A stretch of DNA of 64,000 nucleotides, taken from the IMG/VR virus record IMGVR_UViG_3300042934_001067, positions 92,277-156,276 of that record; one strand, 5' to 3'. Source of the DNA: a virus. The position numbers and the translations under genes were made by a program. This document shows positions 12,198 to 16,363 of this stretch, piece by piece (within the stretch, counting starts at the first letter, position 1; each line of letters begins with the position of its first letter). The notes under the pieces are model-generated. The model made no database searches. It had not been told where the DNA came from and saw only the letters and a program-made list of their open reading frames with translations.

Positions 12198-14141
12198 TTA
12201 CAGCGTGGCGGGTGTGCTGGGGCGGCCGAAGAGTCTGGCCGGGTGGCGGGTGCCGCCGATGAAGGTGACGACTTCCTCGGCGTCCCAGTGGTGCTCGTCC
12301 AGGCGCGGCATGAAGCGGTGGTGCTGGCCGACGTAGGCGAGGGTGAGGTGCGGAGTCCAGCCGTGTTCGGAGGGCAGGCGGTAGCCGTGGCCTTCGAGGT
12401 AGGCGGCGAGGCTGGAGTGCATCTGGGCGCCGCTGGGGATGTCGGCCGCCGCCCACAGGACGTGCTCGCCCTTGAAGGCGTTGTTGAAGGTGCCGATGCC
12501 GCCGATGCGGACGTGGACGGGCTTGTGGCGGGCGGCCCAGGCGCCGACGACCTGCGGGAGCAGCTGGAGCTGCTCGCGGGTGTAGTCGGTGGTGTTGCCG
12601 AGGTAGGCGAGGGTGACGTGGAGCTGGTCGGCGGGCTGGCCGTCCTCGCGGGCCAGCTGTTCAGCGACCTCGCGCGGCGGCACGAGCGCCACCATCACGC
12701 CCTCGTCGTGGAGGACGGCTGCCGCCTGCCGCTGCAGGAACTGCTGCTCGGCCGCCGTGGCCTGGACAGCGGCGGTGTGGTGGGTCGGCTCGGTCCACCC
12801 GTCGTCCGGCCCGTGGACGGCGGGGTGCTCGATGTGGGGTCCGTTGTAGCCCCACTCGTTGATGTCGTTGCCGTCGGTGTGGACGTGCTTGGCTGGGACG
12901 GTGGCCTTCAGTACGGGCCAGTCCTTGGAGGGGTCGTCCGAGTGCATGCCGTGTTCTAGGGCGTACTGGGAGGAGGTGGAGACCCAGTCGCCGGTGCGGA
13001 TGCTGGTGGTGCCGTGGGGGACGGACCGGTAGATCGTGACCGGCGCCTCGGGATTGCCCTTGGCGCGGTGGACGGCCTTCAGCGACTCCTCGTGCGGCTC
13101 TCCGATCTCGCCCCAGTCGGGGTTGTCCAGCCCTTCCTGGTTGAACGCTCCGCCGTCGCCGTTGGGGCGGGTGGGGTCGTGCAGTGGAGCGTGTTCGGGT
13201 CCAGGCGCGCGGTGCTGCATCCGGTAGTCGTCGTCCATGGACGCAGTCTCCTGCAGGCCAGTCTCGCGGAAGTAGTCTGTCAGGCTGGAGAGTCGGTTGA
13301 TGGCCTTGTCGTAGTCGTGGAGGCCGACGTAGCCGATGTGGAGGGTGCCGTCGTCCAGGTCGCGGTGGATGACGCGATGGCCGCGCGAGGCCTTGGTGGA
13401 GTTCCAGCCCTTGAGCTTCAGGGTCAAGGCGTGAGTCTGCAGCCCCTCGTCGCCACGTTGCAGGGCATTGATGGTGCTGGCCACGCGCTTGCGGCTGTCG
13501 CCGTCGAGCTTGAGCAGCTCCTTCTTCGCGGACGGGTGGAAGGAGACCTGGCGCGGGCCTACAGGCCCAGCTCCTCCTTGATCGGCTCCCACGGCAGGTG
13601 CTGCTCCTGCGGGGTCTTCGCCCGCTCCTGCAGCTCCGTCTCCAGCTCCGGGCTGACGGCGTGGCCGTCCTCGTCCTGCGGTTCGGGTGCTGTCGGCTCC
13701 ATTTCGCTCCTTCCGGAAGTGCGCCGTGGCGGTGTGCGAGGGCTTCCAGCCCTCGTGGTCGTCCAGGCCCTGTTCGTCGCTCAGGTAGTCGGGCGACCAC
13801 CGAACTGGCACGTGTGAGAGGCCAGCCTTGGCGGCGGCCCAGTAGCGGTGCGTGCCGTCGTTGATGTAGGGGGTCCCGTCCTGCTTCCTCCACAGGTGGA
13901 TGGGGTGCTCGATGCCGCGCTGGCGGACGTCGTGCACGAGCGCGTGCAGGTGCTCGGGCTCGTAGCGGTCGTTCGCCATGTCGTCCGCGCTCCACTGCGC
14001 GACGTGCCCCATGGTGATCGGATTGCCGTGCTGGTCGCTGCCGTACTCGGAGTGCATGCGCGCTATGTCGTCCACGTGCATCATCTCGTCCGGCTGATGG
14101 GCTGCCGTACGGAAGAACGCGGTGGCGCTGTGCTCGGTCAT
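12198..14141 (-). CDS. polyvalent protein: ParB-like, RelE-like, ADP-ribosyltransferase-like and 2H phosphoesterase-like segments
   Basis: 647 residues in one open frame. Residues about 20-130 are ParB-like (INDGTHRYWAA). Residues about 196-280 are RelE/ParE-toxin-like (VSFHPSAKKELLKL, then GHRVIHRDLDDGTLHIGYVGLHDYDKA). Residues about 365-440 resemble phage ADP-ribosyltransferases (TIYRSVP, WVSTSS, NDINEWGY). Residues about 480-640 hold the two H-x-T boxes of 2H phosphoesterases (HVTLAYLG, HLTLAYVG). Residues 147-190 look unlike protein and are the shadow of a nested small gene. An internal GTG at 13592 could start the RelE part separately. Such multi-domain proteins are known near phage terminases and may enter the host with the DNA. 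Confidence 0.7.
   Translation of the reverse strand: MTEHSATAFFRTAAHQPDEMMHVDDIARMHSEYGSDQHGNPITMGHVAQWSADDMANDRYEPEHLHALVHDVRQRGIEHPIHLWRKQDGTPYINDGTHRYWAAAKAGLSHVPVRWSPDYLSDEQGLDDHEGWKPSHTATAHFRKERNGADSTRTAGRGRPRRQPGAGDGAAGAGEDPAGAAPAVGADQGGAGPVGPRQVSFHPSAKKELLKLDGDSRKRVASTINALQRGDEGLQTHALTLKLKGWNSTKASRGHRVIHRDLDDGTLHIGYVGLHDYDKAINRLSSLTDYFRETGLQETASMDDDYRMQHRAPGPEHAPLHDPTRPNGDGGAFNQEGLDNPDWGEIGEPHEESLKAVHRAKGNPEAPVTIYRSVPHGTTSIRTGDWVSTSSQYALEHGMHSDDPSKDWPVLKATVPAKHVHTDGNDINEWGYNGPHIEHPAVHGPDDGWTEPTHHTAAVQATAAEQQFLQRQAAAVLHDEGVMVALVPPREVAEQLAREDGQPADQLHVTLAYLGNTTDYTREQLQLLPQVVGAWAARHKPVHVRIGGIGTFNNAFKGEHVLWAAADIPSGAQMHSSLAAYLEGHGYRLPSEHGWTPHLTLAYVGQHHRFMPRLDEHHWDAEEVVTFIGGTRHPARLFGRPSTPATL
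13559..13702 (-). CDS. nested antitoxin-like small gene inside the polyvalent frame
   Basis: 47 residues in another frame of the same strand. The ATG follows GGAAGGAGCGAA, a strong ribosome site inside the larger frame. The product is acidic and ends with LPWEPIKEELGL, closely resembling the tail of small actinobacterial antitoxins (W-E-x-v-k-x-E-L-G-L). It ends just before the RelE-like segment, which has its own possible GTG start at 13592, the gene order of an antitoxin-toxin pair. Function is inferred. Confidence 0.5.
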   Translation of the reverse strand: MEPTAPEPQDEDGHAVSPELETELQERAKTPQEQHLPWEPIKEELGL

Positions 14142-16363
14142 GCGGCCTTCTCCTGGTCCGTGGCGGCGGCCACGCCCGCGTGGGCGTGCTTCCAGTCAAT
14201 CAGCTGCTGCAACGGCTGGTCAGGGGCCTTGTCGAGGGCTTTCCAGACTGCGTTGCTGGGGTCGTAGAGGCCCGTTCCTTCGGGGCCGAATGCGCTGTGG
14301 CGGTCAGCGTGGAGGTAATCGTACAACGCTGCACCTTCCCTTTCGCGCACTCCGTCAGGAAGTTCCCGGACGGCCCCGATCAGTTTCTGCAGCGCCTCGA
14401 ACACGTCCCAGGTGGACTCGGGGAGTTTTTCGGGGCTGAAGTCGTCTGGCACTTCAACAGGTTTCACGGCCCATTCGTCGCGGGTGATGTCGTACGCGGC
14501 GTAGGGCTTTATGTCCCGTATGTCATAGCTAGATGGGTTTACATACCAAGTATTCTCCCAGGGGCCGGTCTCCTTGCCGTCTGGGCCGGGGAGCATGCGG
14601 GCGTCGTCGTTGAGGCCGTGGCGCAGTTCGTCGGTGAGCTTCTCGTCCACGGCAGCCGGGGGCTCGCCGACGAAGGTGTCCACATGGTGGTTGAGGGCGT
14701 CGTGGTCGATGCCGATGAGGATGTCGAGGTCGCCGTTGCCGTAGAAGTGGCTGGCCTCGCTGCCTGCGAGGTAGACGCGGGCCCAGGACTGCCAGGAGTC
14801 ACCGTACTTGGGCGCCCAGAAGCTGTTGAGCAGGCTGAGCAGGTGCTGGCGGACGATCGGGTGCATGCGCTCGTTCTCGTCGAACAGGCGCGGGTCCAGG
14901 CCCTTCTCCCCCGGCGCGAAGAAGTGGTCGCGGGGCAGCCAGTCGTGCTCGTGCTGGTAGGGCTCGTGGTTGTCGGGGACGGGGGTGGTGAAGGCCGTCC
15001 GCTCGCCGATCCCCTTCAGCCACGCCTGCGCGTCGTCGGAGAGCCGGTCGGAGTGCTGGAGGTCTGGGCGCTGCTCGCGCGCTCGTCGCAGCAGCTCGGT
15101 TGCGATACCTCGGCGCTGGTGTTCGTCCCTCACGTTCATGTTGCCGATGACGCCGTCGTCGCCCCAGTTGACGTACCCGGCCATGCTGCCCTCGGGGGTG
15201 CGCATGGTGACGGCCTTGGGTTCGGTGACCGTGTGGTAGGTGTGGCCGGTTTTGGAGGTGAAGTCGCCGTCAGCCCATTCCGGCCTCCCGGCCGAGGCGG
15301 TCTTTCCGTGGCCGCCGTCGGGAAGGCGGCCGTCGCAGGTGGCATCGTCGGGGCTGTTGGCGGGGACGGTGAGGCTGCCGTCGCAGTGGTAGCACTCGAA
15401 GCCGGTGTCGTGCTCGCCGGTGCCGCCACAGCAGGGGCAGGGCTTCGTGGCTGTGGCCATGCGGGGGTGGCCGGTGAGGTGGTATTCGGTGCGGGCGCTG
15501 TCGAGGTCGGCCTTGGGGATGGTCGGCTTGTCGACGGCGGTGAGTCCGATGTGACTGGGGTGGATGTCGGCGGGGACGTGTTCGCCTGCGGCGAGGGCGG
15601 GGTGGTCTTGGGGGACCTTTACGCCGGGACCGGGCAGGCCGTAGGCGCTGCGGCTGACGCGGAGGGGGACGTGGTCCATACCGAGGGCGCGGGCGGCGCG
15701 CAGGCGGTGGTTGCCCTCGCCCAGGTAGGCCTCGCCGCTGGCGGGGTGGTAGTGGAGCATGAGGGGTTCCATCTCGCCGCTGGCGGCAAGGTGGTGGCCG
15801 ACTGCCTTGGCGTGCTCGGGGTCGGTTTCCTGGCTGGCATAGCGCTCGACTTCGTGGCGGGGGACCATTTCGACGTTGGTCCAGTTGCCGACGCGGGCGC
15901 GGATGTGGTGGCCGTGGGGGTTGAGGAGGCGGGAGGGGACGTCGTCGCCGTCCTGGACGGCCGCCGTGGCGGTGGCTGTGGCCATGGTGCGCCCCCGAGT
16001 GACCTTCTTGCCGTCGGTGTAGCCCGCCCACCACGCCTTGCCTGCGTCGGTGCGGTCGCCGTGGTCGATGGGGGTGGCGGGGTGGCGGCGCTGCATCTCG
16101 TCCATGAGGGCGGAGCCGACGCCCTTGCGCTGGTGGGCCTCTTCGGTGCCGAGGTGCTCGATGAGGATCTTGTCGGCTTTGCGGCGGGGGACGTGGTAGG
16201 TGAGGGTGCCCATGCGGTCGCCGGAGCTGGGCTCGACGGCGTGCAGGTGGATCTTGGTGGGGCGTTTGGTGCCACCGGTGTCGACCTCTTCGTGTTCGAA
16301 GTCGATCCCCTGGGGGTCGGCCGCCGCCTGGCGGAAGAAGCTGGTCGCGCTGATGTCCGTCAC
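14138..16363 (-). CDS. polyvalent protein: two GNAT-like, ParB-like, zinc ribbon and nucleotidyltransferase-like segments
   Basis: 741 residues; GTG at 16363 with GGAGG 8 bases upstream. In order: GNAT acetyltransferase-like (EEAHQRKGVGSALM, about 75), ParB-like (GEGNHRLRAARALG, about 225), a DnaJ-type zinc site with two CxxC pairs (CPCCGGTG and CYHCDG, about 305-335), a second GNAT-like segment (RDEHQRRGIATELL, about 415) and a nucleotidyltransferase-like segment (GSEASHFYGNGDLDI, about 530-545) with a helical C-terminus. It begins with the same SATSFFRQAA module as its downstream neighbour (SATAFFRTAA). The genes overlap by four bases, so they are co-translated. Enzyme activities are untested inferences. 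Confidence 0.7.
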   Translation of the reverse strand: MTDISATSFFRQAAADPQGIDFEHEEVDTGGTKRPTKIHLHAVEPSSGDRMGTLTYHVPRRKADKILIEHLGTEEAHQRKGVGSALMDEMQRRHPATPIDHGDRTDAGKAWWAGYTDGKKVTRGRTMATATATAAVQDGDDVPSRLLNPHGHHIRARVGNWTNVEMVPRHEVERYASQETDPEHAKAVGHHLAASGEMEPLMLHYHPASGEAYLGEGNHRLRAARALGMDHVPLRVSRSAYGLPGPGVKVPQDHPALAAGEHVPADIHPSHIGLTAVDKPTIPKADLDSARTEYHLTGHPRMATATKPCPCCGGTGEHDTGFECYHCDGSLTVPANSPDDATCDGRLPDGGHGKTASAGRPEWADGDFTSKTGHTYHTVTEPKAVTMRTPEGSMAGYVNWGDDGVIGNMNVRDEHQRRGIATELLRRAREQRPDLQHSDRLSDDAQAWLKGIGERTAFTTPVPDNHEPYQHEHDWLPRDHFFAPGEKGLDPRLFDENERMHPIVRQHLLSLLNSFWAPKYGDSWQSWARVYLAGSEASHFYGNGDLDILIGIDHDALNHHVDTFVGEPPAAVDEKLTDELRHGLNDDARMLPGPDGKETGPWENTWYVNPSSYDIRDIKPYAAYDITRDEWAVKPVEVPDDFSPEKLPESTWDVFEALQKLIGAVRELPDGVREREGAALYDYLHADRHSAFGPEGTGLYDPSNAVWKALDKAPDQPLQQLIDWKHAHAGVAAATDQEKAA

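What the first reader, a model, noticed from the sequence alone, without database searches (positions are those of the whole stretch)
12198..14141. Antitoxin-like gene nested out of frame inside a polyvalent protein
The 647-residue frame is open from a ParB-like part through a RelE-like part, yet residues about 147-190 read as the shadow of a 47-residue antitoxin-like gene with its own strong ribosome site. The RelE-like part has its own possible GTG start. So the fused protein may contain a toxin domain, and a separate antitoxin may be made from the same DNA.
Basis: partly seen in the sequence, partly recalled or inferred. Interest (0 to 1): 0.7.

Follow-up and report, generated by a model that had tools for sequence, protein, structure and literature searches.

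The report
Antitoxin-like gene hidden inside toxin gene
A Streptomyces virus-plasmid carries a large multi-domain protein gene containing a RelE/YoeB-type toxin domain, and the same DNA, read one base out of step just before that domain, encodes a conserved small protein that is probably the toxin's antidote, an arrangement kept in nine related viruses.

Summary
The 647-aa frame (14141..12198, -) is open throughout, and a 47-aa frame (13702..13559, -) with a strong ribosome site lies inside it, one base out of step. Counting the window, nine distinct loci keep the same nested small frame just before a RelE/YoeB-type domain. None has a stop or frameshift in the large frame, although the upstream domains differ (ParB, Arr-type ART, GNAT, metallopeptidase-like, or none).

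Substitution patterns switch at the small stop codon. Before it, only the small frame is protected (z 3.3); after it, only the fused frame is (z 5.9). AlphaFold and Foldseek place the toxin-like domain in the YoeB/YafQ/RelE fold. In seven of nine loci the domain has no start codon of its own after the small gene begins. All nine small frames end in TAG, so the fused frame reads GTA rather than a GTG start.

Best reading: a phage polyvalent effector whose toxin domain is made only as part of the fusion, with a better-initiated, overprinted antitoxin. Antitoxin activity, toxicity and packaging are inferred. The proposed separate GTG start of RelE is not general. It is a new variant of intragenic antitoxins and polyvalent proteins.

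The parts
12198..14141 (-). 647-aa polyvalent fusion gene: ParB-like / RelE-YoeB-like / ART-like / 2H phosphoesterase
   Evidence: open frame; Pfam and PHROG matches; relatives keep the single frame
13559..13702 (-). nested 47-aa antitoxin-like ORF, +1 relative to the fused frame, stop TAG
   Evidence: homologues nested at the same place in eight other loci; purifying selection on this frame only within the overlap; AF2 helix 18-29 and helix 38-45
13707..13712 (-). Shine-Dalgarno AAGGAG of the nested ORF
   Evidence: conserved, mostly AAGGAGG, in relatives
13559..13562 (-). overlap of the small ORF's TAG stop with fused-frame codon GTA (not GTG) just before the RelE fold; TAG/GTA in 9 of 9 loci
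   Evidence: stop usage in 37 CDS of pRLB1-9.1 is TGA 28, TAG 5, TAA 4
13248..13553 (-). RelE/YoeB-type (BECR fold) toxin-like domain
   Evidence: AF2 pLDDT 82.6; Foldseek YafQ/YoeB/RelK, E 2e-5, TM up to 0.80; phrog_1213 RelE-like toxin E 5e-4
13590..13592 (-).
13713..13736 (-). linker motif HTATAHFR before the nested module (same kind as N-terminal SATAFFRTAA)
   Evidence: N-terminal motif
13803..13967 (-). ParB_N-like domain (residues 59-113)
   Evidence: Pfam PF02195 E 4e-4, below cut-off; KorB/Spo0J weak matches in PDB
12828..13253 (-). ADP-ribosyltransferase-like segment (residues 297-438), phrog_2579
   Evidence: E 7e-37 (PHROG name 'ParB C-terminal domain'); ART assignment by motif is inference
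12327..12647 (-). 2H phosphoesterase (2'-5' RNA ligase family) domain
   Evidence: PF13563 E 1.6e-13
14138..16363 (-). upstream 741-aa polyvalent-type gene (GNAT domains), start/stop overlap ATGA with the fused gene

Best explanation
A RelE/YoeB-type toxin domain has been built into a phage polyvalent effector protein, and its antitoxin is encoded out of frame within the linker directly before it. Ribosomes starting at 14141 read one continuous frame and make the whole ParB-RelE-ART-2H protein. The out-of-frame stretch is read through as a meaningless but stop-free Ala/Gly/Arg-rich linker. Ribosomes starting at 13702 on the same mRNA, from a stronger Shine-Dalgarno site, make a 47-aa helical protein that binds and silences the RelE-type domain in the producing (lysogenic or lytic) cell. 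The toxin domain lacks its own start, because the codon at the antitoxin stop is GTA rather than GTG, so it exists only within the fusion and always together with antitoxin. The fusion is probably packaged and injected, and the antitoxin is left behind or degraded, so that the RNase domain acts in the new host. Shown by sequence or computation: both frames, conservation, frame-specific selection, RelE fold, lack of a separate start in most relatives. Inferred: translation of both proteins, antitoxin activity, toxicity, packaging and delivery.
For: Nine loci (window, L006, L009, L011, L012, L013, L017, L018, L019) share the nested layout, with small proteins 41-56 aa long and as little as 14% identical. 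Zero stops occur in any fused frame. The frame under selection switches at the TAG: 28 codons before, small z 3.3 and fused z -0.6; 28 codons after, fused z 5.9 and small z -1.9. Strong SD at 8 of 9 small starts against 4.5% of other out-of-frame ATGs. The RelE domain has no in-frame start between the small start and its first ~15 codons in 7 of 9 loci. The spacers before and after the small ORF differ in length (10-23 codons; 3, 8 or 9 codons) yet always keep the fused frame in phase. RelE/YoeB fold. L005, which kept only the C-terminal remnant of RelE, has no such small ORF. Domain company (ART-PolyVal PF18760, Arr, GNAT, 2H, ParB) fits phage polyvalent proteins (PMC5512222).
Against: No database family identifies the small protein as an antitoxin, and a profile comparison with PF09720 gave nothing (probability 0.8%). 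Openness of the fused frame over the overlap is not improbable by itself. In five relatives the adjacent RelE-like domain has Gln where the others have Arg in the GH(R/Q)V motif and lacks part of the first strand, so it may be catalytically weak there. Net charges of small protein and RelE are complementary in some loci but not all. No expression or toxicity data. The nine loci fall into about three sequence groups, so they are not nine independent events. In the window itself a GTG start for RelE (13592) cannot be excluded.
Confidence: 0.62

Rival explanations
1. The nested small protein is real and co-selected with the RelE-like domain but is not an antitoxin; it could be a folding or packaging partner of the fusion, or its translation could serve only to regulate the fusion.
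For: No antitoxin family match; in some relatives the adjacent RelE domain may be inactive, yet the small frame is still conserved.
Against: Position directly before a RelE/YoeB domain, antitoxin-toxin order as in relBE and yefM-yoeB, two-helix prediction, absence where RelE is reduced to a remnant (L005).
Confidence: 0.2
2. The large frame is an accident of high GC content: really three separate genes (ParB-like, antitoxin, RelE-ART-2H), with RelE started separately, for example at the GTG at 13592.
For: Openness of the overlap alone is likely by chance; GTG 13592 exists here and in L006.
Against: No RelE start codon in seven loci; variable spacers always in phase; no stop after any of the different upstream domains; the linker motif directly upstream is read in the fused frame. 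NCBI annotates the pRLB1-9.1 copy as one 828-aa CDS.
Confidence: 0.08
3. The small frame is a dead relic of a former antitoxin gene and the region now serves only as a linker.
For: No small ORF annotated in pRLB1-9.1; the fused reading there is low-complexity.
Against: Selection on the small frame between present-day pairs and a kept strong SD plus ATG in nearly all loci.
Confidence: 0.07

Closest known systems
Phage polyvalent proteins (Iyer et al. 2017, PMC5512222), including PBECR/MuF-C RNase domains
   Same: Large phage proteins combining ParB, ART, GNAT, BECR-fold RNase and 2H domains with heavy domain shuffling; PF18760 ART-PolyVal in two relatives
   Different: The passages read describe no antitoxin inside the gene; the RelE domain here is a RelE/YoeB-type toxin with an overprinted partner
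Rpn intragenic antitoxins (Zhong et al. 2023, PMC10327210)
   Same: A gene within a gene: a small protein made from an internal start is the antitoxin of the full-length toxin
   Different: RpnS is in frame and is the C-terminal part of the toxin itself; here the small protein is out of frame, unrelated in sequence to the fusion, and lies before the toxin domain
Type II relBE / yefM-yoeB modules and fused or multidomain RelE/ParE toxins (PMC11980606)
   Same: Antitoxin encoded directly before a BECR-fold toxin; multidomain and fused forms are known
   Different: Those are bicistronic or in-frame antitoxin-toxin fusions; here the toxin is fused to other domains while the antitoxin stays separate by being in another frame
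PF09720 Unstab_antitox (antitoxins lacking a DNA-binding domain)
   Same: By eye, a similar C-terminal pattern E..xR......PWEEV..EL
   Different: No significant match; the N-terminal helix of the family is absent

Membership tests
RelE/YoeB (BECR-fold) toxins | BECR fold: strand, two helices, four-stranded sheet, C-terminal helix | tested here: met
   AF2 pLDDT 82.6, order E-H-H-E-E-E-E-H; Foldseek 9lew, 6l8e, 3oei, E about 2e-5, TM up to 0.80
RelE/YoeB (BECR-fold) toxins | sequence family match | tested here: inconclusive
   phrog_1213 RelE-like toxin E 5e-4; Pfam ParE_toxin 0.037 for one member only; PDB sequence profile none
RelE/YoeB (BECR-fold) toxins | catalytic residues and RNase/toxic activity | tested here: inconclusive
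   His59, Val61, His63, Arg64 and His79 of the domain invariant in 14 sequences; Arg60 is Gln in five; activity not testable here
Type II antitoxins | small protein encoded next to, and binding, the cognate toxin | tested here: inconclusive
   position and co-conservation met; binding not testable
Type II antitoxins | match to a known antitoxin family | tested here: not met
   Pfam, NCBIfam, PHROGs, PDB profile and PF09720 profile comparison all negative
Phage polyvalent proteins | several shuffled effector domains of the polyvalent repertoire in one phage protein | tested here: met
   ParB-like, RelE-like, phrog_2579, 2H here; Arr-ms, ART-PolyVal, GNAT, 2H in relatives
Phage polyvalent proteins | packaged in the virion and injected | not testable with these tools
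   2H domain shared with capsid protease/MuF-type phage proteins; gene close to the terminase gene; no proteomics
Intragenic antitoxin (Rpn type) | antitoxin is an in-frame C-terminal part of the toxin | tested here: not met
   small ORF is +1 to the fused frame and upstream of the toxin domain

The most novel reading that the evidence does not exclude
An overprinted type II antitoxin: the first out-of-frame antitoxin nested inside a virion-delivered multi-effector protein, which lets a phage-plasmid carry a RelE-type toxin as an injected weapon with immunity hard-wired into the same DNA, while mutations have removed any separate start for the toxin.
Probability: 0.45. Interest if true: 0.82.

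Novelty: new variant of a known kind. Interest (0 to 1): 0.7.

Why it matters
Phage polyvalent proteins carry domains that should harm the cell that makes them, and how producers are protected is open. This arrangement gives a concrete, testable answer for one family. It also extends intragenic antitoxins from in-frame to out-of-frame overlap. Standard annotation misses the small gene: NCBI's record of pRLB1-9.1 has one CDS there. The frame-switch signature could be used to look for similar hidden immunity genes.

Tried and rejected
Chance openness as evidence: rejected as uninformative. Codon-position counts in the overlap: no clear asymmetry, so permutation tests were used instead, with a stop-anchored ungapped control and a RelE positive control. 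Charge complementarity of the pair: inconsistent. PF09720 kinship: resemblance by eye, not supported by profile comparison. Stand-alone relatives in bacteria: none from genome contigs with the RelE profile and none in 295 Streptomyces genomes except the phage-plasmid remnant. RelE part against INPHARED phages: no match. A further RelE-profile scan of viral contigs returned only loci already held. The TATAFFR linker as a genome-wide packaging signal: found at the N-termini of only these two genes by a simple pattern. Papers: no report of an out-of-frame antitoxin inside a polyvalent gene found in the held library, which is not proof of absence.

Full report
What is there. The window is the last 64 kb of a 156-kb virus record. 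Its kin are Streptomyces elements of about 155 kb, including plasmid pRLB1-9.1 and a contig of Streptomyces sp. MH60, with a terminase resembling those of large actinobacterial phages such as Rhodococcus phage E3 and Mycobacterium phage Myrna. The gene in question follows the terminase, a small ORF and a 741-aa GNAT-containing gene on the minus strand. The 647-aa frame contains a weak ParB_N match, a RelE-like part, a phrog_2579 segment that looks like an ADP-ribosyltransferase (my reading of its motifs), and a clear 2H phosphoesterase. The 47-aa ORF at 13702..13559 is nested one base out of step, with AAGGAG 4 nt before its ATG.

Relatives. Scans of IMG/VR gave eight further distinct loci with the same layout. 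Every locus has a continuous fused frame of 588 to about 1270 aa (cut short at the contig end in L012), and a +1 small ORF of 41-56 codons with SD and ATG that ends in TAG directly before the RelE-like fold. The domain before the module differs: ParB in the window, an Arr-type ADP-ribosyltransferase in L006, GNAT in L009 and L017, a HExxH metallopeptidase-like segment (by motif) in L012, L018 and L019, and nothing but the N-terminal motif in L011 and L013. In each case the linker before the small ORF is read in the fused frame. The spacers differ in length but always keep phase. A tenth locus, L005 (also L007, L010, L020 and L036), has lost all but the end of the RelE domain and has no small ORF.

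Is each frame coding? Openness proves nothing at this GC content. I therefore compared present-day pairs and asked whether substitutions are milder in a given frame than the same substitutions placed at random. Over the whole overlap the small frame gives z 4.8 (0 of 1000), the fused frame 0.4 and the third frame -1.2. To exclude alignment bias I anchored ungapped blocks at the shared stop: the small frame gave p 0.025 and 0.001 for two sets of pairs, and the fused frame was not significant. As a control, the 28 codons after the stop give fused z 5.9 and small phase z -1.9, while the 28 codons before it give small z 3.3 and fused z -0.6. Constraint therefore changes frame at the TAG. The fused frame in the overlap behaves as a linker that only has to stay open.

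Why the RelE part must be a fusion. In seven of nine loci there is no ATG, GTG or TTG in the fused frame between the small start and the first codons of RelE. All nine small ORFs stop with TAG, giving fused codon GTA; TGA, the usual stop in this group (28 of 37 CDS in pRLB1-9.1), would give a GTG start right there. My inference is that a separate toxin start has been selected away, but shared ancestry could also explain the uniform TAG.

What the domain is. AlphaFold2 with 14 sequences gives pLDDT 82.6. Foldseek ranks DinJ-YafQ, YoeB-YefM and M. tuberculosis RelJK toxins first, with E about 2e-5 and TM up to 0.80. Sequence evidence is weaker (phrog_1213 E 5e-4). The GH(R/Q)V.HR and HDY-like motifs fit the YoeB style (inference). 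In five relatives the Arg of that motif is Gln. The small protein is predicted as two helices (modest confidence), with no family match.

How it most likely works. Co-production of fusion and antidote from one mRNA, with the antidote from the stronger ribosome site, would protect the producing cell. Phage polyvalent proteins are thought to be packaged and injected (PMC5512222). The 2H domain here is shared with capsid protease/MuF-type proteins. An injected fusion without its antidote could then attack RNA in the new host. Translation, inhibition, toxicity and packaging are all untested.

Known or new. Intragenic antitoxins are known from Rpn (PMC10327210), but in frame and part of the toxin. 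RelE/ParE multidomain and fused forms are known (PMC11980606). Polyvalent proteins with BECR RNases are known (PMC5512222). I found no report of an out-of-frame antitoxin nested in such a gene in the papers I could search.

Noticed in passing
window 14141..12198(-) and 16363..14138(-); relatives L006, L009, L012, L017, L019: A short motif of the type (S/T)AT(A/S)FFRxAA opens both adjacent polyvalent genes and recurs between domains in the fused proteins of relatives; it may be a capsid-targeting or processing signal and a recombination joint for domain shuffling.
   Followed up: partly
L013:4001-4339, L011:4001-4336, L012:4001-4339, L018:4001-4339, L017:4277-4612, L019:4001-4336: These relatives have a second RelE-like domain in tandem that keeps the HRV motif; no small ORF was seen for it, so one small protein may serve two domains or the second may be unguarded.
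   Followed up: partly
L005:3053-4993 (Streptomyces sp. MH60 contig NZ_MULI01000008, L036): The same gene with its front half swapped for GNAT and other segments; only the last ~35 residues of RelE remain and the nested ORF is gone, which suggests the module is exchanged as a unit.
   Followed up: yes
L006:2248-4014: An Arr-type (rifampin ADP-ribosyltransferase, PF12120, E 2e-13) domain is fused at the front of the phage polyvalent protein.
   Followed up: no
L030:27387-28557 (pRLB1-9.1): A tgmA-type ATP-grasp RiPP precursor and its MvdC/D-like ATP-grasp enzyme are annotated on the phage-like plasmid.
   Followed up: no
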